From NCBI GenBank assembly GCA_019973155.2, contig BPQB01000085.1:1-64000 (forward strand): 64,000 bases of DNA, written 5' to 3'. Source of the DNA: Phanerochaete sordida (Eukaryota; Basidiomycota; Agaricomycetes; Polyporales; Phanerochaetaceae). Shown piece after piece: positions 45,327-64,000 of the stretch; position 1 is the stretch's first letter, and every line of letters starts with the position of its first letter. Below the pieces are notes generated by a model, which made no database searches, was not told the origin of the DNA, and saw only the letters and a program-made list of their open reading frames with translations. The translations under genes and the position numbers were made by a program.

Positions 45327-46973
45327 ATGACAGACCAAATAGATCCCGGGCTCGTCAGTGCGCTGAACGAATTGTACGTCTATTGCGCAGTGCCACGCGT
45401 GCATTCAGGCTAACATACTGAACCAGCGCGCTGGGCAACCGCATCGGCCTTTCGATGACTGGTGAGCCGAATGCGTTCTATGCTCTTGTATCAGTCCATT
45501 TATTCCGCCTTCACTAGTCCTTCCCCTCTTCGAATATGTGATCACGATCGACCTCGAAGTGGCGACGGTTTGGAGGCGAAAGTTTACTGTCCCCTCACTT
45601 CTGCTGATCACGACACGATGGAATATGGTGCTCGGTGCCTTACTCTTCTTCTGGCCTACTCCGTCTGTGAAGGTGAGTCTTCCTCTCGCTTCTACTAATT
45701 GCTGATATTCACGCTCGAATTCAGGCGTAAGCAGCACGTCAACCTATACTCGTAAACCCCAGCCTGATCTCTTTTCAGCTGTACCATTACGACCGATCTG
45801 GATCAGGTTTCCCATTTGATAGGCTTCGTTCAGACGGCTCGTGCGTTTCAATCACCATCCCGCTTATGGCATTGCGCTCTCCTAATACATCATACAGTAT
45901 TCTCCGCACTTCGGGTGTATGCCATTTGGGGACGAAATTATTTCCTGTTCTCCGTGGTGCTTGCTCTCAGCCTCGTGCCTGTGGGGACGAATCTTGTGCG
46001 TTCTGCACTTACATTTTCGTGATTTATTCGGCTCATCGATAGTTGTAGTTCGCTAGCGTGCGCACGACGAACTTTCTCGTCGGTCCACCTTTCGAGGCAT
46101 GTGGTCAAGACCTTGACGGTGTATCGGTCACCGTTACCAAAGCGTACGTGCTTCATCACAATTGTAACGCAGATCTAGGCTAACGCTCCGGTAGATGTAC
46201 GCCTTGGACGTTCTGGCTCGAACTTGTCGGCCTGACACGCTTACAGTGCTATACTTCACACGGGGCTCGCTCATTCTCGCCGACGTCATTGTAATTGCCA
46301 CCACTTGGATGAAGACCTTCCGCCAGTGGCTCACCGCGCGGCGTCTCAATATGCCTTTGTCGGTCTCGAGCTGCCTACTGGCTGACGGTTCGTCGTACCT
46401 TCAGTGCAAGGCCAGTAAATGGTACTAACTACGTTGTTTGTCAGGAACTTCATATTTTATGTGCGTGACGCCCTTTCCCCGCCTGAAGCCGTTGTAACAG
46501 TGGACCCAGCATCCTGCTCGTGATGAACATCCTACAACTCGCAACAGCAGGGAATGCGGTGTGTACCCTGTAATCTATTTTACGCTTGGGATACTAATCA
46601 CACAATCAACGCAGGTCGTCGAGGGGCCGTTGACATCCGTCGTTTCAACACTGGTCAGTTTCTTCTACCTTGCGACGGATATTATCTGATACGAAGCACG
46701 TAGCCCCCGATCCTCGTCTCACGCTTCATGCTCAACCTGCGCGCATTGAGCGTGCCAGAAGACCAGAGCATGTCTGCTCCGTGTCCGCCGCCTTTGCCCA
46801 GAGCGCCGCATCACGCGCGGCCGTCGCGGCTGGCCGGAAACATGGGAGAGTCGCTGATGTTTGCAGGAAACGACAGTGATCTTGGGGATGACGATGAGCT
46901 GTCCCCATTCGAGGGTCCAGAGCATCTAGCCAGTAGCCTCACTGAACCTATCGCAGGTCCCTCAGCGGCATGA
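45327..46973 (+). CDS. DUF6533-domain seven-helix membrane protein (paralogue 1)
   Basis: Member of the large Agaricomycete DUF6533 family, polytopic proteins with receptor-like topology and no known function. It starts MTDQIDPGLVSALNE. The DUF6533 core is PLFEYVITIDLEVATVWRRKFTVPSLLLITTRWNMVLGALLF. Later helices: FSALRVYAIWGRNYFLFSVVL, RGSLILADVIVIATTWMKTFRQW, SILLVMNILQLA and PPILVSRFMLNLRAL, then a Pro-rich and acidic tail ending AGPSAA. At least eight short introns are needed. The frame after TPSVK is kept only with a two-nucleotide exon at 45725-45726. The splice structure around 46140-46250 is unresolved. It is the only family member here on the plus strand, separated from the others by two unrelated genes. 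Confidence 0.85.
45725..45726 (+). other. Two-nucleotide microexon (GC), paralogue 1
   Basis: Flanked by introns 45673-45724 (52 nt, ends TTCAG) and 45727-45778 (52 nt, starts GTAAGC). GC plus the next C makes the Ala codon before CTITTDLDQV. A single larger intron would put all later helices out of frame. Confidence 0.8.
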
Positions 46974-54326: not shown

Positions 54327-55953
54327 TCAGAACCCACGTTCGAGGCTGGCCACGTCGTGCACCTGTCCGTTTCGCCCGCAGCGTGCACGAGCGCATGCCC
54401 CGCGTGGCGCGGTGCAAGCCGACAGGCTGTCCTGCGCGCCGGGCGTGTCCTGTGCGTCGCCGTCGGGCGCGAAGCTGCGCTCATCGCCGCACACATAGCC
54501 CAGCGGCGCACCAATGTCTCCGAGCACGCTGTGCCCCGCGAAGACGACGCTCGACACGCGCGCGTCCACCGTGCAGCCGCGCTCCGCGCAGCTGCGCAGG
54601 CCCAGCAGGAAGCGCGAGACGACGACCGGGGGCTGGATGTGCGTCAGTCGCTGGCGGGCGTTTTGTGGTGGGTGGCGTACGAGTTGGATGACGACAGGTT
54701 CGAGGCCCAGCATCCGCCATTGCCAGGCCAATGTCACGAGGAGGTCGATCGTATTCATGCCTAGTAAAACCCTGCGTTTCGTCGTCGGGAGTTATACAGA
54801 GAGCTCGAGAGGAGAAGAGGCCTGAACGCACAAGAAATAGACAGTCCCTGTGCAATATATGTCAGCATACACAAGGATATGGAAAGAACGTCGTACCGTC
54901 TCTCATAAGACATGTCGTGATCGGCAGATTCATGCCCAATCGCTTGCCTCTGCGCCAGAGGTGAAAGGTCGACCGCCATGTTACGACGAGGACGATGACA
55001 TCCGCGACAATCATAGCCCATCTGGTCAGTATCGATACTAGTGGCGCGATAAGAAGTGTTCTAGTCGCCAGCATATGACTAGGGCTTACAGCTGACCAGT
55101 GTCAGTCCGGGCCGCGTTCCGTGTGGCTGGGGCACTTACAGGTCGATTTTCGCATACAAACCGGGTTTCAGGGAATACGAGTCTCCGCTGTCCCTACAGA
55201 CAAAAGCCAAGATCCTGTTCTGGGGGTGGCAGGGTCATTATAAACGTCACGGGGTGGCGCAATGACGCACGATGTTCTCCCCGATCGGGGTCAAGCTCAA
55301 GAGAATGACTATTGCTGCTAACACCACGCGTCGCTCTGCCAGTGCGTACACCCGTAGGGCCGAAAAAACTAGTAAGAAAACTCAACGTGGAAATTCCGGT
55401 GATAAGAGAGGCTCGTACGAGCAACATGTATGATACCGGCGATATCGAGCATGATGCTGAGGGGCAGAGGTGCCATGCAGCTGCGATCATGGATGAGTGT
55501 TTGCACTAGTAGTGGAATGGCTGGAATATACTGACCCCTAGTGACAATTTGAGATCGCGCAGCAGCTCTACTGACTTGAGGAACACGTACAGTATGACTC
55601 TGAGTTTGCCCGGGGACGAAGATGAGCATGCCGTTGATGAGCATGCACCAGCGGGTGCTGAGCAGCAGCATGGACGACAGTGTCTTTTTGCGTTTCCAGG
55701 CAGAGGAAACTTCGCGGTCGAAGTTAATGACGAACTCGTAGAGAGACAGAGCTTGACGATGCGGATACGGTGCGTTAGCGGACTCGGACGGTAATTTCAT
55801 AAGTAGGTACTAGTGTGCACACCGCTCATTGCGTAATCGACGCAGTCACCAAACCATCTGGGATGATAGTCAGTCGGAGGTGGGAGGTATATATTTCGCT
55901 GGACGTGCTTACGCTTCTTTCAAGTCTGGGATGTATGGTGCACGTTCAGAGGC
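54327..55953 (-). CDS. DUF6533-domain membrane protein (paralogue 2)
   Basis: First of a tandem minus-strand array. Readable exons: ERAPYIPDLKEA, WFGDCVDYAMS, ALSLYEFVINFDREVSSAWKRKK, MLLLSTRWCMLINGMLIF, then CMAPLPLSIMLDIAGIIHVAR, FSALRVYALAERRVVLAAIVIL, LTRWA with MIVADVIVLVVTWRSTFHLWR, MNLPITTCLMRDG, a helix around MNTIDLLVTLAWQWRML and VVVSRFLLGLRSC, and a Cys/Arg-rich tail ending DVASLERGF. I could not find an in-frame ATG for the first exon, so the 5' end is uncertain. Needs a two-nucleotide exon at 55536-55537. Confidence 0.75.
55536..55537 (-). other. Two-nucleotide microexon (GG), paralogue 2
   Basis: Between introns 55538-55590 (53 nt, ends CACTAG) and 55481-55535 (55 nt, starts GTCAGT). 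GG plus C gives Gly before CMAPLPL. Confidence 0.8.
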
Positions 55954-56459
55954 CGACACCGATACAGAGGAGCGCGCCGCTATGAAGGACTGAGAGGTCT
56001 TGGGAGCAAATGGGCACCGTGACAGCGCGCGAGATTTATAGGAGCCCTGGGTATGATCTTGATGGCCCCGACTCGAACGCGATGAACCATCTGATTGCTA
56101 TACCTAGAGGAAGAGCTTCATTAGGTCGTCGTAGGGATCATGGTAATTTGAGCTGGCTGCCACACCCCACTCGTCGTTCTGGGTAGAGATGACTGTCATG
56201 GTAATCGGGATCTGACAATGATATTGGCACTCCGATGGCCTGTTTATGGAATAAGGAGTGCAGAGATTCATACCACTGGCTTCAGTCTTGCTATGAATAT
56301 TTCCTTGAACTGCGGCCGCAGCCTGATGATGAAGCAACATCTGTTCATCTGAATTGCGGTTGTGGGCAACGTCCAGGACTTGCAGAGAAACACAGCAAGT
56401 AACAGTGATCCACGGGATATATATATATACGTATTCCCTGTAGGTGCGTGAGGATGCGC
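55954..56459. other. Non-coding stretch with a diverged duplicated segment
   Basis: Two short blocks here (56,060-56,090, ATCTTGATGGCCCCGACTCGAA; and about 56,140-56,210) resemble blocks at about 56,790-56,820 and 57,120-57,180. No gene is supported. Confidence 0.4.
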
Positions 56460-56665
56460 TGCAATTCGCCTGATACATGGCCCGCGGGCGCACCCTGAAA
56501 ATATGCTCCCAGTCAGAACCCACGCCCGAGACTGGCCACGCCCGCTCACCGTCCGTTCAGCCCGCAGCTCGCACGAGCGCAGGTCCCACATGGCGCGTCG
56601 CAGGCGGGCAGACTGTCCTGCGCGCCGGACGCGTCCTGCTGGAGATGCCGTACTCGACGCGCGTG
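56460..56665 (-). pseudogene. Solo 3' fragment of a DUF6533 gene
   Basis: About 200 bp matching the last codons and 3' flank of paralogue 2 (54290-54470). Shared phrases include GGCGCGCAGGACAG, TGCGCTCGTGC, CGTGGGTTCTGAC and CGCGGGCCATGTATC. The copy has a TGA where paralogue 2 reads through, just after CGLNGR. None of the upstream helices are present. Confidence 0.7.
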
Positions 56666-57401
56666 CTCTTCCTCTAGGGTCATCATGCATGCTGCCGATG
56701 GAGACGATAGCATCGCCATCTAATTCGATGGTGCGGAGAGTGAAGGGAGAGGCCCTGGAGTACACACTGCGCGACATTTATGCGAAGCAGGTTATCTTGA
56801 TGGCTCCGAATTCGAACGGTCCTCGTGAGAGAACGAAGCATGCTACTCCCAGAGCCGGAAGGGCTGCATGGGGAACCCGAACCCCCGTGTGTTCGCGATG
56901 GAGCTGTCATAATATTGGTGAGACGTCAAGGCCTGTCCGTCCAGGCATCCAGAGCTGTGAAGGCCGGTCTAGGGGCGCTGCCAGCCAAGGTTGGGAAACT
57001 GTGTGACGAAACTCCAAAGAAAACATTACTATACCGCCCCCTGTATGCTGTAGAGTACTTAGTCTTGGCTTATCCGATTGGCCTTTCTGCTGCGGTGTTA
57101 GCCGTACTTTGGCGTGCGAGCGAGCATCGTGATTGTCAGAGCTCGCAGCAACACTTCGCTGATCCTTCTGGGTATAACGGCCGTTCTGGAAACTCACCAG
57201 GATCTAACAGTGATGTTGGCACCGAGGGAAGCTGTTTGCAGAGCAAAGAGCGGCGAGTTTGCTGACTCTCTGCAATGCGATCACAGCTCAACGATGATGC
57301 ATGACGCACGAGACGCATACGGGCCTGCAGGCCGAGCCGCGCCCGAGGGCTGCAAGTTCGGATTGCCGCAAAAGCAGACTGTTAAGTGTGTAGACATCAA
57401 A
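56666..57401. other. Decayed region within the DUF6533 array
   Basis: No intact gene. It has the second copies of the short duplicated blocks noted at 55,954-56,459. Some hydrophobic open frames are visible, but none match the neighbours. Confidence 0.4.
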
Positions 57402-59184
57402 TCAATCTTGCCGGGTGAGCATCGACGATGCGCGACCGACATGATACAGACCTACATGCTTGTGTATGATAGCACGCGGACAAACCCTACACGGGTGAGA
57501 GCTGTAAACGTCTTCCGCGTCAAATGTTGTACCGTCCAGGACAGAACGTGTACAGCTCACCCCTGCGCCCGCAGCTATCGTACCCTGAACGTCGGCGCGG
57601 CTGTCTTCCCCGGCATTCTCGTTCACATTCTGCTCCTCGCTTTCGATGGCGAAGGCCCCAAGGTCGACATCGCGTGTGTAATCCAGGAGCGCGCCGATGT
57701 TGCCCGAAGTGCTCTGCGCCGCGAAGCGCACGCTGGGACTGGAGAGCGGCAGGCTCGCGTCCACCCCACAGTCGTTTGTGCAATCGCGAAGGGTCAGCAG
57801 GAAGCGCGAGATGATGATAGGGGGCTAGATGATCCGTTGAGTTTTACATCGGGCTTGGCAAGGCACAGAGAGAGAGAGCGTACGAGGTAGACGATGATTC
57901 CGTTCAGGCCCACAATCTGCCAGATCGACGTGACCACCCCAGTAAGATCGATGATGTTCATGCCTAGTAACACGCTGGGCTCGGAGTTCCGTCGAGATTG
58001 AGCGGACAAGCGAGTTAGTGAGATTCGGGCTTACATGAAATAACCAGTACCTACACACGTATGAAGACATCAGTGGATGCAAAGGCACAAAACAAGTCCC
58101 TTACCATCTCTCATGAGGCATGTCGTGACCGGTAAGTGAACGTTCAGGCGGTGACTGCTTCGCCACTGGTCGAAGGTCTTTGCCCACGTCACGAGGAGGA
58201 CGATGACATCAGCCAAAACCAACGAACACCTTGTCGAAAAAGATACTGGAGGTGGGTTAATTATATCCCAGCCACGGTCAGCGTTGTAAAACGTACAACT
58301 AGAGAAGCTCAACTATCCGCACAGCACTTCACGTGTCCGAGAGACTCACATGATTGGGTGCGCCCACGGAGTGAGACCCAGGAAGTAGATGCCATCGCTG
58401 GATTCACAGACGTAGTGTAGGTCTCTGAACTACAATAATGACTATATCAGGGCTGGTAGCACAAAATAATGTGGTGGCGTACAATGTTGGTGCCGACTGG
58501 GACCAGGTTCAGCACAAACACCGCCGCTGATAGTACTAGATGCCCGTTCGCCAGCGCATGCACTCGTAGGGCGGAGAACACTAGCGAAAGGAATCAGCGG
58601 GAAATTTCATGTGGAAAGCCACATTCGCTCGTACGAGCAGCTTGTGCGAAGCCTGCAATGTTGAGGCCTGCAGCAAGGACTGCAGGTGCCATGCAACTGC
58701 GTTCAAGTTTCAGTATGGGCACCATACGGTGGCAGAGTCAGGCTCTGTTCGACTCACCTCTGTCAGACCGATAAGATTGCCCGATGTTGGCACTGATAAC
58801 GAGCAGGATACGGTACATACAGCATAGTTTGGAGGGGAAGCGGGTAAGTACGCTAGCGTGAGCACGCCGTACGCAAGCATGCACCAGCGGATGCTCAGCA
58901 GCAATACCGATGACACTGTCGCCTTGCGTCGCCACGCGGTGGCGACCTCCAGGTCAAGGTTGATGAAGAACTCGTAGATAGAAAGCACTTGACAGCGCGT
59001 ACGCGCATCAGCAGAAGGAACAATACCACCGATAAATGCATGCCCGCACCGGCCATAGCGTAGTTCACGGCGGCGGACAGCGTTCTGCAGCAATGGTCAG
59101 CCTAATGTCGCTGATAGACAGCACCTGGCTCACGCACGCTTGCTCTAGCGCTGCTATGTATTCCGCCCATGCGGCGGATGACAT
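57402..59184 (-). CDS. DUF6533-domain membrane protein (paralogue 3)
   Basis: Starts MSSAAWAEYIAALEQA at 59184; exon 2 gives TLSAAVNYAMA. The core is LSIYEFFINLDLEVATAWRRK with VLLLSIRWCMLAYGVL. Then CMAPAVLAAGLNIAGFAQAAR, FSALRVHALANGHLVLSAAVFVLNLVPVGTNI, RCSLVLADVIVLLVTWAKTFDQW, HLPVTTCLMRDG, SVLLGMNIIDLTGVV, IIISRFLLTLRDC, and a long Ser/acidic tail ending MLTRQD. The two-nucleotide exon is at 58758-58759. The sequence LPVTTCLMRDG is nearly invariant among the array members. The start is well supported by parallel MTSTTWAKYLAELDEA in the next gene. Confidence 0.82.
58758..58759 (-). other. Two-nucleotide microexon (AG), paralogue 3
   Basis: Between introns 58760-58820 (61 nt, ends CTGACAG) and 58697-58757 (61 nt, starts GTGAGT). 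AG plus T gives Ser before CMAPAVL. Confidence 0.8.
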
Positions 59185-60120
59185 CGCTGATATACAGACG
59201 TCGGCAGCGTCTCGCCTGGTTAGTCTCGAGAGAGTGTGAGCGTATCGGACCATCTAGAAAGCATTTACCGCGAGCTTTATGCGGTGCGGATAGCAAGGGG
59301 ACACTGGGTGGCATTTCGTCCGTGCCTGGTCAGCACAGATCTCATAAACGTGCTGTCGTGATTCGTGAGCTTCGGTGTCTAAATTCCGTTGTTCTGTGCG
59401 CAGAGTATGCTCATGCATGTGAGCTCGAGCACCACGAATGTGGTGGCTGTGATGGAACTCACCGCCATTTTGTATTGTCAAGAGTCTATTTTCGCAGGCT
59501 ATAATCATAGAAAGTTCGTGGCTTCTGCAATCTGATGTGAAGTCTTTGGGTCGGTGACAGCCGATGATAGATGGCAATTGTGAGGACGCAAATGTAGCAG
59601 AGTTTGCAGCCGCGTCGCAATGACTCTTCAGGCTAGGTATCACCACCATGAGAAATGTAGAGACAGCGATTATGCTGAGACGCACGTGTGTGTTCGAAGA
59701 AAAGAAAGAGTAGCTCATGGCGGTCCCAGCCTCGGCTCCAGTCTAGCTGACTTTCAATCTTCTATAGTAAGGCCCTCGGTCTTATACACGTTCATTGCCA
59801 AAATACTGATAATTGAATCTCCGCATATATATCGTTACTGATGGTTTGAAGTACATTGTTTACAGGCATACTTACACAACAAGGAGCAGTGCCCCGCAGA
59901 ATGCATCGAATGGTCCTCTGCAGCTGGACCAGTGCAGTACATCTTCTGATTACTATGCGAGATGCACCATGAAGTTTAAGGTAAATGCGCAAATACTTAG
60001 ACGGGAAACTGAAAACCACCGCATAATATGTAGCCTACGGCTGTGCCTCATGTACTGAGGTGGAATGACCCTGTAGTGGCTCTAATGATGCAACTTATAA
60101 ACGGACGCGCCATCAGATCC
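59185..60120. other. Gap in the array with a possible gene relic
   Basis: A minus-strand frame (59254-59718) begins MSYSFFSSNTHVRLSIIAVSTF and has one hydrophobic segment and LPSIIGCHRPK, faintly like a third helix of other DUF6533 subfamilies. It has no partner exons, so I treat it as a possible relic only. Confidence 0.3.
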
Positions 60121-61768
60121 TCATAGACTGCCCACGTCAAGCTGACGGATGACGCTGACCTCCCCAGCCCTCCTACGGTCTGTGCACGCCTCATCGCAGA
60201 CCTCAGGCATCGCGTCGCCAGCATTCATGTGCGCGTCGTCCTCTTCCCTATAACCACCCTCCCTGTCGCTATCACTCACATAGCTGAGTCCGTCGTCGCG
60301 CGCATATTCCAGCGGCGCGCCGATATTACCAAACACGCCCTGCCGAGCAAATTCGGGGGCGGAAAGCGGTGGCAGGCTGGCGTCCCCTGCGCAGCCGCTG
60401 TCGCTGGTGCAGTCGCGCAGGTTCAGGAGGAAGCGGGAAATCAAAATGGGCGGCTGCGCCTGCGGTTAGTTCGAGGATGGACGCGGGCTGAGAAATGCGT
60501 ACGAGATAAACGATAATCGGGCTCAGTCCTAGGATTTGCCACTCCCAGGTCAGCACACCGACGAGATCGATGATGTTCATCGCTAACAAAATCCTTGGCT
60601 CGATGTTTATTAATCGTCAGGACTGTTGTGGTAGGAGTACGCACAGGAAATAGGTGGTTCCTATACGCAATAACGTTAGTAAGGCCACGAAATAGAATAA
60701 ATCCTGTACCATCTCTCATCAGACACGTTGTGACTGGCAGACTCATGCGGAGCCGATTGCTGGTGCGCCACTGGTGGAAGGTCTTCCTCCACGTCACGAC
60801 GAGGACGATGACATCCGCAAGAATTAGTGCGCATCTTGTCAGAATAGTCACTAGCGAGGTTTAGATCAGCCTTGAGCAGATACGAATCACCTATAACTCA
60901 CTCCTAACAGAGATCAGTCGCCGTGCGGCACGTCATTCGAGCGGAACACCCACGTCGTGTAGAGCGAACTAGACACGGGGACGCTCACAGAATACGAGCC
61001 TCCGCTGAGCTCACAGACATAATTTGAGTCTCTATACTGCGGAAGGCTCGCATGAGGATAAACAACGCGCTATGCGACAGCGCCATCCACGTACGGCGTT
61101 GGTCCCGATCGGCATCAAGCTCAGGACGAGCACCACCACGGATAGCACGAGGCTATTGTCTGCCAGTGCAAACACACGCAGAGCGGAAACGACTAGGAGC
61201 AGGAGTCAGTAACCGAGTACCGGTTCAGAGCTGGGGCAGACGCACGAGCAGCTTGCGCGAAACCGGCGAGGTTGAACATGGCGCCGAGGATCGCGGATGC
61301 CTTGCATCTATACCATGGCATGGTCAGCGACCGAGGTCAGTGATGGAGATGGATGCCCGCTGACCCCTGTTGGAACGATCAGACGTGGACTGCACTAACA
61401 GGAGAGCGATACGCACGTTGAAGCTTGGTGTCGGCGCAAAAATGAGCACGCCATTCGCGAGCATGCACCAGCGGATGGTGAGCAGCAGCAGGGACGGCGC
61501 CGTCTTTTTGCGCTTCCAAGCGGTGGAAACTTCCAAGTCGATGTTGATAAGAAACTCGTAGATGGACAGTGCTTTGAGTGCGCGAGCATGTCAGCAGGAT
61601 GCGACCGCGAGGGTCGACGGAGAGTGGGCCCACCACTCATAGCATAGTTGACGCAATTTCCGAGCCATCTGCGATAAATGTTGTCTGGACATCGCCAGAG
61701 GATAACAGAGGGGATACGTACGCTTCGTCGAGCTCTGCCAAGTATTTCGCCCATGTGGTGGATGTCAT
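60121..61768 (-). CDS. DUF6533-domain membrane protein (paralogue 4)
   Basis: Starts MTSTTWAKYLAELDEA at 61768 (an in-frame upstream ATG also exists), then WLGNCVNYAMS and ALSIYEFLINIDLEVSTAWKRKKTAPSL with LLLTIRWCMLANGVLIF. Later exons: CKASAILGAMFNLAGFAQAAR, SALRVFALADNSLVLSVVVVL, LTRCALILADVIVLVVTWRKTFHQW, MSLPVTTCLMRDG, MNIIDLVGVLTWEWQILGL, ILISRFLLNLRDC, then a tail with FGNIGAPLEYARDD ending QLDVGSL. The tail motif GNIGAPL(D/E)Y recurs in paralogues 2-5. The two-nucleotide exon is at 61365-61366. Confidence 0.82.
61365..61366 (-). other. Two-nucleotide microexon (GG), paralogue 4
   Basis: Between introns 61367-61416 (50 nt, ends CAACAG) and 61308-61364 (57 nt, starts GTCAGC). GG plus A gives Gly before CKASAIL. 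Confidence 0.8.
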
Positions 61769-62521
61769 AGAAGTTGAAGCCCGCCCGCACTGCGGTACTT
61801 GAGGAGGGTGGGAGGAGTGGACGAACGTATATGGCCCTCCTGGACGCATTTCTCGGAGGCTTTATGCGGTGCAGACGGTGGCGCCGAAGGTAGCCCGTGG
61901 GCTACAGGACGCTGTTACATTGTCCGGCCACGATCCGTCGGAGAGACGCCAGCGGTCGATGTCTACTCCTAAACTGGGAGGGTCAGAATCGTCGGCTACG
62001 AAGAAGGCAATGGTGCGGCTGACCTGGTTGCGCGTCCTTCAAGCTCTCCGCCGGTCGGAAAGCTTGTTGTCACGCCTCGCTGATTCTTCAGGACAAGGAT
62101 GACCGTTGTGGGATCTCCGCAGGGCAAGCGGTATATGAATAGTTAGTCAATCCATACCAGGAAAGCAGGATACTCTGTCGAGCGATGACTCCCGCATAAA
62201 ACAGATTTTGAAGCGTACAGCCCTTTGAACGCAATGTCAAACCCGACGCCCCCGCGAAGGGCCATGACTTCAATTGAGCATTCAAATCTGTCCGGAATAC
62301 GCCACTTGCGGGATGATCGAGGGTGCCACACCGACGCCGAGGGCGCCGATGGTAGCTCGGAGAACGAAGGTAACGGGGGGCGCTTCGACACAGGAACTGA
62401 GGACGTGCATGTGCAGAACGTACATCCCACGCATACAATGTAAGTGATAGATATTGTTTCTGGAACGTCCAAGGCGAAGTTGATGTCAAAATGACGGCAC
62501 AAGATGTGACATTTTGCCCAC
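61769..62521. other. Spacer between paralogues 4 and 5
   Basis: About 750 bp; it holds the promoter of paralogue 4 and the 3' region of paralogue 5. No recognised gene. Confidence 0.4.
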
Positions 62522-64000
62522 CTACAGACGTGCTCTAGAGTCATTCGCAAGTGAAGGCGACACATCGATTGGCCTAGACACGCTCCTAACCTCCATGTCG
62601 TCTTCGTCGTCAGAGCCGAATCTTTCGGCCTGCGAATAATCCAGCGAGGCACCAATATTCCCGATGACATGCGAGGTTGCAGAGTCTCTGTTCAGGTTTG
62701 AGAGCCGAGGTAGTAAAGAGTTTGTGGGCTCTCCCGCGTCTGTACAATCCCGTAGATGTAGGAGAAAGCGCGAGATGACCACCGGAGGCTGTGTGCGAAG
62801 TCAGAGGATGATGATAAGCGTCAAGCGAGGCGTCTACGAACGAGATATGCGCCAACGGCGTTGAAACCTTGGGTTGACTAAGAACCGTTAGCGACAGTTG
62901 AGAGTCAGAGGTTTGTCCACAGCGTACGGTGAGACTCCCAGCCAGGATCCCCGCGTTCATGCCGAGCAGCACCCTGTGCCATATTTCAATTACCTGCGTC
63001 CGATGATCATTGGTCGTAACGCACAGGAAATAAAACGTCCCTTGTATCAGATGAGTATTATTCGCGCTGTAGCCACGCAAATCGCACCGTCTCTGATAAG
63101 GTACGATGTCACTGGCAGAGCTACGCTCAGGCGACGGGAATTTTGCCACTGGTGATACGTTTTCGCCCACGTAACGACCAAAACGAGGACATCAGCTGTA
63201 ACGACAGACGTCCTTGTGAGTATAGATACTGTGGACAGACGTCAGTCGCATTCGCACCGCCATGAAGCAATGCATACGTCTAGAAATAACGCACATTCAG
63301 TAGCTGCACATCAGGGCGAACCAAGAGAACGCTCACTTTGTGTGCAGTGAGCCCGAAATCCCCACGACAGTCGCCCCGCATGATGACCAGCTCCCGACAA
63401 AAACGTAATGAGCCATCGTGTACTGCAGAAATATTAGCGTCATCTCTATAGGAATAGCATCAGATACCAGCGAGATTGGTTCCGATTGGCATTGAGCTCA
63501 GCACCAGCACGGACACGGAAAGCGCCAGATTCTTCTCTGTCAGGGCATATACCCGTAGGGAGGAGAACACTGAATGTCAGACCCGTCCGTCAAGGGGTCT
63601 TGGGCCGGATCTCTTCGCTGGGAACTCACATGCCGTCTGTGCGAAGCCTAGTATTTGCAGCCCAGCTTCGGATACACCCTCCGCTATGCATCTATGCAGA
63701 ACGTCAGCCGCAGTCAACCGAAGACGCGCCAAGCACATTCACCCCTGGCAGGTTTATCAGCCCAGGTACGGCCTCTCTAATCAATCAGCGTACCTTGTGG
63801 GTGGTGGCCGGGGTAAACAGCAAAATGCTGTTCAGGAACAGCGTCCAGCGAACGCTGATAAGCAGGATTGAGGTCGCTGTCTTCTTGCGCTGCCACGCCG
63901 TGATGACCTCCAAGTCCAGGTTGATGATGAACTCGTGCATGCATAGCGCTATAATAGAGGGCGTATCAGCAGGCGCAGCTCCAGGAGGTGCGCATAGACA
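62522..64000 (-). CDS. DUF6533-domain membrane protein (paralogue 5), 5' end beyond window
   Basis: The DUF6533 core exon near the right edge reads CMHEFIINLDLEVITAWQRKKTATSILLISVRW followed by TLFLNSILLF; the first exons lie beyond 64000. Then CIAEGVSEAGLQILGFAQT, FSSLRVYALTEKNLALSVSVLVL, a C-terminal MVISRFLLHLRDC and the tail motif VIGNIGASLDYSQ, ending at 62522. The two-nucleotide exon is at 63743-63744. This copy lacks the clear LPVTTCLMRDG phrase and has less regular spacing, so it may be diverging or partly decayed. Confidence 0.72.
63743..63744 (-). other. Two-nucleotide microexon (GG), paralogue 5
   Basis: Between introns 63745-63793 (49 nt, ends TGCCAG) and 63692-63742 (51 nt, starts GTGAAT). 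GG plus A gives Gly before CIAEGVS. Confidence 0.78.

What the first reader, a model, noticed from the sequence alone, without database searches (positions are those of the whole stretch)
55481..63793. A two-nucleotide exon kept in four tandem DUF6533 genes
In paralogues 2-5 the exon ending after the second helix and the exon starting at the conserved Cys are out of phase by two bases. In each gene the gap contains AG|NN|GT: two ordinary 49-61 nt introns separated by exactly two bases (GG, AG, GG, GG at 55536, 58758, 61365 and 63743). With the next base these form a small residue (Gly or Ser) right before Cys. Two-nucleotide exons are at the lower limit of known splicing and are missed by gene finders. 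Exon definition cannot work here, so intron definition, ordered splicing or a coupled double-intron removal is implied.
Basis: partly seen in the sequence, partly recalled or inferred. Interest (0 to 1): 0.9.

Follow-up and report, generated by a model that had tools for sequence, protein, structure and literature searches.

The report
Two-base exon in receptor-like gene family
A family of fungal membrane-protein genes appears to be spliced through an exon only two letters long, and in one branch the same short DNA signal seems to have become a two-step splicing site instead.

Summary
In four tandem genes (minus strand) two normal-sized introns flank exactly two bases (GG, AG, GG, GG) before a conserved Cys codon. 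A fifth window gene (45725-45726, GC) and two more on the contig share it, one with a GC donor.
It is not local. Of 173 DUF6533-type places in this genome 153 were read; in 116 the Cys exon was located behind AG|N, and 99 of these carry AG-NN-GT at that distance (shuffled mean 10.6, maximum 20).
The unit is read in two ways. About 60 genes have a phase-0 first donor: a true two-base exon. About 35-40 have NN|GT{GTRNG...AG}RNG: keeping the two bases breaks the frame, but removing the inner intron rebuilds a donor, a [D2,3] stwintron. Of 63 perfect first-donor sites, 62 fit one of these.
Support: intron-loss paralogues keep the codon; a Phanerochaete carnosa protein and a transcript-like ortholog align gap-free across the join. 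No transcript of this species was available. Published models of two window genes miss the exon. No two-base exon was found in the held papers; one-base exons are known.

The parts
63743..63744 (-). two-base exon GG (63803 gene); introns 63793-63745 (49 nt) and 63742-63692 (51 nt)
   Evidence: AG|GG|GT, phase-0 donor gtacgc after CAC AAG, A|TGC after
61365..61366 (-). two-base exon GG (61417 gene); introns 61416-61367 (50 nt) and 61364-61308 (57 nt)
   Evidence: AG|GG|GT, donor gtgcgt phase 0, A|TGC after; predicted product gap-free against P. carnosa P0003
58758..58759 (-). two-base exon AG (58839 gene); introns 58820-58760 (61 nt) and 58757-58697 (61 nt)
   Evidence: donors gtatgt and gtgagt, both perfect GTRNGT
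55536..55537 (-). two-base exon GG (55609 gene); introns 55590-55538 (53 nt) and 55535-55481 (55 nt)
   Evidence: donors gtacgt and gtcagt
   Evidence: donors gtgagt and gtaagc, C|TGT after
61417..61571 (-). helix 1-2 exon of the 61417 gene, ends in phase 0 at AAC
61246..61307 (-). helix 3 exon of the 61417 gene, begins A|TGC (conserved Cys)
63803..63949 (-). matched part of the helix 1-2 exon of the 63803 gene (exon runs on to 63794)
58839..58985 (-). matched part of the helix 1-2 exon of the 58839 gene (exon runs on to 58821)
55609..55752 (-). matched part of the helix 1-2 exon of the 55609 gene (exon runs on to 55591)
45520..45669 (+). matched part of the helix 1-2 exon of the fifth gene (exon runs on to 45672)

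Best explanation
These are DUF6533 membrane-protein genes (probably seven helices) in which two ordinary introns of about 53 nt enter the coding sequence two bases apart: intron 1 sits 3 nt and intron 2 sits 1 nt before a conserved Cys codon at the start of helix 3. The two bases form a real exon, the first two letters of the codon before Cys, and must be kept for the frame. The two splice sites are too close to be used at once, so the introns are most likely removed one after the other by intron definition (inferred, not tested). The arrangement runs through most of the family in this genome and is probably ancestral. In one clade the first donor lies behind four extra bases (NN|GT{GTRNG). 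There the same AG-NN-GT unit is not an exon: removing the inner intron joins GT to RNG and makes a new donor, and the rest is then removed as the outer intron of a [D2,3] stwintron. Shown from sequence: positions, phases, splice-site statistics, intron-loss series and protein-level matches in other fungi. Inferred: the splicing itself, its order, and the direction of the change.
For: Unit in 99 of 116 genes against a shuffled mean of 10.6. All GTRNGT sites 44-70 nt upstream of NN, in genes with one unit and without the C8 genes: 42 in phase 0 and not after GT, 20 in phase 1 directly after GT, 1 in phase 1 without GT, 0 in phase 2; 26 genes had none. With class set by donor-1 phase alone, G at +5 of the second GT is 40 of 42 (phase 0) against 2 of 20 (phase 1 after GT), P=1.8e-11. 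A strict frame-and-site classifier finds 58 type I and 35 type II of 131; shuffled means 1.2 and 0.61 over the 116. Branch-point-like CTRAY in the two type I introns (62 genes): 0.68 and 0.53 against 0.13 shuffled. Intron-loss paralogues: phase-0 intron then AGC TGC, AGA TGC, AGC TGT (C2:141907, C2:644069, C42:80239; the last with a borderline Cys-exon score of 5.0); a single phase-2 intron then C|TGC (C41:107647); no intron with ACC TGC and GAC TGC (C104:7291, C35:206075). P. carnosa P0003 aligns with 0 gaps over 104 residues with Gly before Cys, while annotated P0002 needs a 5-residue gap. Ortholog P0012 (340 aa on a 1277-nt contig, 73% identical) reads QQ-T-CSI against predicted QE-T-CSI, where Thr is built from the two-base exon AC plus G; no gap at the join, 6 gap positions near the N-terminus where my exon joins were rough.
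Against: No RNA from this species was seen, so inclusion is inferred. The genomic DNA behind P0012 and P0003 was not available, so those genes could have lost the introns. Some splice sites are weak: the focal 61417 gene has second donor GTCAGC, which fails my strict classifier, and 89939 fails too; 45520 passed it only through a different, spurious unit. The published models chose other splices (P0001, P0002). In-frame single-intron donors of moderate score exist in several genes, such as GTTAGT in 61417 and GTACTT in 58839. Some single-intron paralogues (C16 cluster incl. C16:451422, C86:3937, C86:18281, C2:760058, C2:762586) have their intron at other, nearby places. Branch-point enrichment in the second half of type II is weak: CTRAY 0.27, equal to the shuffled maximum. 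A type II protein search found nothing at E<=1e-6. The type II clade rests on a poorly resolved tree.
Confidence: 0.9

Rival explanations
1. A single long intron with a different in-frame donor is used, as in the published gene models, and AG-NN-GT is incidental.
For: P0002 uses a donor after VRIAL and P0001 a donor before the loop; such in-frame donors exist in several genes.
Against: The published predictions came from BRAKER2 followed by manual curation; the term RNA does not occur in that paper's text. They place an insertion or a deletion exactly where P. carnosa aligns gap-free. The 63803 gene has only a poor donor inside helix 2. The unit is present in 99 of 116 genes, with donors in fixed phases.
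Confidence: 0.04
2. All AG-NN-GT genes, including the focal ones, are stwintrons with no exon.
For: About 35-40 genes fit [D2,3].
Against: Of the 66 genes of the loose type I list none fits [D1,2] or [D4,5], the nestings I worked out as keeping the frame with a phase-0 inner donor. Their second donors are mostly complete on their own.
Confidence: 0.03
3. Type II genes use one long intron with the weak phase-2 donor GTGTRN, and the inner unit is only a relic.
For: The result is in frame either way. Three genes of one small clade (C104:39572, C104:56738, C58:194806) have lost G at +5 of the rebuilt donor. In Lipomyces starkeyi a complex intron with abutting donors can be removed in one or two steps (PMC7138796, abstract and Discussion read). 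The second half has a weak branch-point signal.
Against: In the 32 genes of the loose type II list the inner donor has R at +3 in 30 and G at +5 in 31, and N1 is R in 31 (site scores helped pick these genes). In the 20 picked by donor 1 alone N1 is R in 20 of 20 while the bases after the unit are free. A relic should decay on both sides.
Confidence: 0.2
4. The genes are decaying pseudogenes and the frame is not maintained.
For: A few family matches elsewhere carry in-frame stops (8 of 150, three of them on C126).
Against: Open helix exons, consensus splice sites, and 0 stop codons formed at the joint codon in 66 type I and 32 type II genes; few would be expected by chance, though (0.15 for type I), so this last point is weak.
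Confidence: 0.03

Closest known systems
One-nucleotide exon of Fusarium CYP621A P450 genes (PMC12940212; abstract and Discussion read)
   Same: Tiny exon inferred from out-of-phase flanking exons, AG-N-GT unit, intact intronless relative, missed by annotation; there supported by sequencing reads according to the abstract
   Different: One base, one orthologous gene in an ascomycete genus; here two bases in about 60 paralogues of one basidiomycete genome, and no species-matched reads
One-nucleotide microexons of plant APC11 and VPS55 (PMC8831610, passages read; PMC4674806, search listing only)
   Same: Conserved tiny exon with intron-loss relatives, missing from reference annotations
   Different: Plant genes, one base; '2-nt' does not occur in the text of PMC8831610
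[D2,3] stwintron of bioDA and other stwintrons (PMC5639578, abstract and Background read; PMC12403724, Introduction read)
   Same: Inner intron splits the outer donor between bases 2 and 3; consecutive removal; intron definition
   Different: Described in Ascomycota. Reported origin: an internal intron appears in an existing intron; here the type II clade seems to sit inside a family with a two-base exon at the same place. Compares with the type II paralogues, not with the four focal genes
Stwintronisation in Lipomyces (PMC7138796, abstract and Discussion read)
   Same: Abutting or closely shifted donors, alternative one-step or two-step removal
   Different: Thought to start from one long intron in a reticulon-like gene; no two-base exon involved
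Phanerochaete chrysosporium P450 microexons (PMC1184071, passages read)
   Same: Same genus, many short exons and short introns
   Different: Shortest exon reported there is 6 bp

Membership tests
DUF6533 (PF20151) proteins | Pfam DUF6533 profile above the curated cut-off | tested here: met
   P0001 and P0002, published models of the 58.8k and 61.4k genes: 24.6 and 28.2 bits, cut-off 24.1. Not tested separately for the other window genes, which match by the helix 1-2 search.
DUF6533 (PF20151) proteins | Seven transmembrane helices (described for the family member SNB1; PMC10949477, passages) | tested here: inconclusive
   Model of relative P0012 shows seven helical stretches, mean pLDDT 60.5, third one starting at the residue before Cys. 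Not modelled for a window gene.
Microexon of two bases (focal, type I) | Acceptor and donor abutting the exon, both flanking introns of ordinary length with a branch-point-like motif | tested here: met
   some donors weak (61417, 89939)
Microexon of two bases (focal, type I) | Bases required for the reading frame | tested here: met
   Phase 0 + 2 + N|TGY; intron-loss paralogues keep the codon
Microexon of two bases (focal, type I) | Bases present in mature mRNA | tested here: inconclusive
   Ortholog P0012 of a type I paralogue, on a 1277-nt contig that holds the whole frame, carries the residue; no mRNA of this species
[D2,3] stwintron (type II paralogues, not the focal genes) | Inner intron between bases 2 and 3 of an outer donor that is complete only after inner removal | tested here: met
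   NN|GT{GTRNG..AG}RNG in 35 (strict) to 40 (hand-extended) genes; bases after the unit not donor-like
[D2,3] stwintron (type II paralogues, not the focal genes) | Splicing intermediate lacking only the inner intron | not testable with these tools
   Needs RT-PCR
[D] stwintron for the focal (type I) genes | An outer donor nested so that full removal keeps the frame ([D1,2] or [D4,5]) | tested here: not met
   0 of 66 genes of the loose type I list compatible

The most novel reading that the evidence does not exclude
An ancient two-base exon is the ancestral state of the DUF6533 family. In one clade a shift of the first donor by four bases turned it into a family of [D2,3] stwintrons, so the same AG-NN-GT unit serves as an exon in some paralogues and as a donor-rebuilding hub in others. 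This would be a route from a minimal exon to a nested intron, with paralogues carrying GTGTGT at the first donor (C85:87449, C58:149219, C104:94452) as possible bridging forms.
Probability: 0.6. Interest if true: 0.88.

Novelty: new variant of a known kind. Interest (0 to 1): 0.8.

Why it matters
One-base exons are known in single genes. A two-base exon carried by dozens of paralogues in one genome gives a natural series (kept, first or second intron lost, both lost, changed to a nested intron) in which the lower limit of exon recognition, splicing order and the birth of stwintrons can be tested side by side. It also means that many DUF6533 receptor-like proteins of mushrooms may be mispredicted from helix 3 on. 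The Pfam domain is 46 positions long and in P0012 ends at residue 70, inside the second helix and 17 residues before the Cys.

Tried and rejected
Rejected: reading all AG-NN-GT genes as two-base exons (fails the frame in type II); reading the focal genes as stwintrons (0 of 66 compatible); an alternative acceptor downstream of the Cys codon in 61417, seen by eye: it would remove the conserved Cys.

Led nowhere: transcripts of a type II gene (23 candidates, none at E<=1e-6); a closed full-length model of the 61417 gene past helix 4 (one search ends in a frame break, see Noticed in passing); the order of removal of the two introns in type I, which donor composition does not settle. The structure model of P0012 was too weak (mean pLDDT 60.5) to search with, so no fold search was run.

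Rows dropped before counts: 20 of 173 merged places were never fetched; 22 of 153 had no convincing Cys exon (score 5 or less); 15 of 131 lacked AG|N before TGY. The Cys finder gave a small bonus (1.5) for AG|N, so 116 of 131 is slightly favoured; the AG-NN-GT unit played no part in it. Hand changes: one gene moved from type I to II (GC outer donor), three C8 genes removed because another intron lies between (frame unknown), seven type II and one type I added from displayed sequence, giving 63 and 40; two of the 63 were left out of the tree (read-through stops). C17:344380 is type II in the loose list and type I in the strict one; its neighbours are type I. The strict classifier also calls some genes single-intron that I read as type I (61417, 89939, C2:713891).
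Full report
What was checked. In each, the helix 1-2 exon ends in phase 0 at a GT donor and the next large exon begins N|TGC, so exactly two more bases are needed. A fifth gene in the window (plus strand, 45520) has AG|GC|GT at 45725-45726. Two more on the same contig, C85:89939 and C85:87449, have GG, the latter followed by a GC donor.

The genome. Protein matches point to Phanerochaete sordida YK-624 or something very close. P0002 (PsYK624_145100) matches the 61417 gene at 100% over 78 residues when the same alternative donor is used. P0001 (PsYK624_145090) matches the 58839 gene and, by eye, differs only by an 11-residue deletion at the joint. The published assembly is 41.2 Mb in 341 contigs, predicted with BRAKER2 and then manually curated (PMC8530024, passages); G000 has 40.8 Mb in 222 contigs.

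Family survey. Two searches of the genome (the first scored only 150 of 203 candidates) merge to 173 places. The helix-3 exon with its Cys was located in 131, and 116 of these have AG|N before TGY. In 99 of the 116 an AG-NN-GT unit stands with its GT 44-72 nt upstream of the Cys codon. Other spacings from 0 to 9 give 5-26 genes, except k=6 (50), which I read as the echo of GTNNGT. Shuffling gives a mean of 10.6 and a maximum of 20 in 200 rounds.

Two ways of reading one unit. For every perfect GTRNGT site 44-70 nt before NN (genes with one unit, C8 genes left out) I recorded phase and the two preceding bases: 42 phase 0 and not after GT, 20 phase 1 and after GT, 1 phase 1 not after GT, 0 phase 2; 26 genes had no perfect site. 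Phase 0 makes NN an in-frame two-base exon (type I). Phase 1 after GT cannot keep NN in frame; in the loose list the codon would even be a stop in 8 of 32. But cutting out GTRNGT...AG leaves GT next to RNGT, a complete donor in phase 2, which is in frame with N|TGY: a [D2,3] stwintron (type II). The two readings predict different constraints, and these are seen with class set by donor 1 alone: G at +5 after the unit in 40 of 42 against 2 of 20, GTRNG in 32 of 42 against 1 of 20, N2=G in 20 of 42 against 2 of 20, N1=R in 36 of 42 against 20 of 20 (the last not significant, P=0.16). Counts depend on stringency: 66 type I, 32 type II and 18 neither of 116 (loose); 58, 35, 13 single-intron-like and 25 none of 131 (strict; shuffled means 1.2 and 0.61, maxima 6 and 2, over the 116); 63 and 40 after hand checks. 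The strict rule drops the focal 61417 gene, because its second donor GTCAGC matches only one of three consensus positions, and 89939; it accepts 45520 through a different unit than the one I describe. This is a limit of the rule, but these donors are indeed weaker.

Intron-loss paralogues. They place the two introns independently. A phase-0 intron followed by an intact codon and Cys, with the second intron gone: C2:141907 (AGC TGC), C2:644069 (AGA TGC), C42:80239 (AGC TGT; borderline Cys score). A single phase-2 intron directly before C|TGC: C41:107647. No intron: C104:7291 (ACC TGC) and C35:206075 (GAC TGC). Intron 1 thus sits 3 nt and intron 2 sits 1 nt before the Cys codon, two bases apart. 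Other single-intron genes (the C16 cluster, C86:3937, C86:18281, C2:760058, C2:762586) have their intron nearby but not at exactly these places.

Other fungi. P. carnosa P0003 aligns without gap over 104 residues with the predicted 61417 product and has Gly before Cys; the published P. sordida P0002 carries VRIALL, read from the first intron, and needs a 5-residue gap. For type I gene C11:625611 a search found P0012: 340 aa on a 1277-nt contig tagged lgn (which I read, from recall, as assemblies of sequencing runs), 73% identical and gap-free over the joint, with Thr where the two-base exon AC plus G predicts Thr. The contig holds the whole frame without introns, so I take it as a transcript; its genome was not seen. 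The published Sparassis latifolia protein P0008 reads on with VRISM at the same place, as if through a phase-0 GTNCGN donor (my inference), and Grifola P0006 lacks the helix-3 stretch.

Evolution. A tree of 101 spliced segments (76 columns, poorly resolved, midpoint root for drawing) needs 3 changes for type II, with one origin not excluded; 26 rows on one side are all type I, and type I also lies on the other side. This suggests, but does not show, that the two-base exon is older. Genes with GTGTGT at the first donor (C85:87449; C58:149219 and C104:94452 with GTGTGTACGT) can be read both ways and could be bridges.

Mechanism. Introns of median 53-54 nt on either side of the two bases suit intron definition; the acceptor and donor can hardly be bound at once, so removal should be ordered (inference). 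Skipping the two bases would shift the frame. The residue before Cys is often small (Ser, Gly, Ala or Thr in 44 of 66 type I) but not always. In a weak model of P0012 it lies at the start of the third helix.

Literature. Searches of the held library for two-base exons listed none; the terms were a limited set and subscription papers are mostly not held. One-base exons are in print: PMC4674806 (search listing), PMC8831610 (passages) and PMC12940212 (abstract and Discussion). Of ten papers holding 'stwintron', the five I opened concern ascomycetes. A second search ranked no basidiomycete stwintron study among the ten listed of 1,919 matches; the two broad reviews at its top were not opened. PMC12403724 (Introduction read) states that types other than [D1,2] were rarely encountered.

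Noticed in passing
window 60851-60988 (minus strand): In the 61417 gene the stretch between the exons ending at 60989 and starting at 60850 holds another AG|GA|GTGAGT (60903-60902), but neither a two-base exon nor the simple introns I tried by eye close the frame well there; unexplained.
   Followed up: partly
C85:87449 (L013, outside the window): Two-base exon followed by a GC donor (GG|GCGAGT) and a first donor GTGTGT that can also be read as a weak stwintron.
   Followed up: partly
C104:39572, C104:56738, C58:194806 (the last two in L020 and L018): In a small clade with C104:31680 and C104:48944, these three have lost G at +5 of the rebuilt donor: a possible stage of stwintron decay or return to one long intron.
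   Followed up: partly
proteins P0001, P0002, P0005, P0006, P0008: Public gene models of DUF6533 proteins in several Polyporales look garbled at the helix 2-helix 3 joint (insertion, deletion, missing or seemingly shifted helix 3).
   Followed up: partly
DUF6533 proteins, Cys at the start of helix 3 and Cys after helix 4 (e.g. P0001, P0003, P0012): The placement resembles the helix 3 to extracellular loop 2 disulfide of GPCRs (recalled), which might explain why frame and Cys are so strictly kept.
   Followed up: no
whole genome G000: At least 150 DUF6533 matches, many in clusters on C2, C58, C86, C104, C35 and C16: a large family expansion.
   Followed up: no
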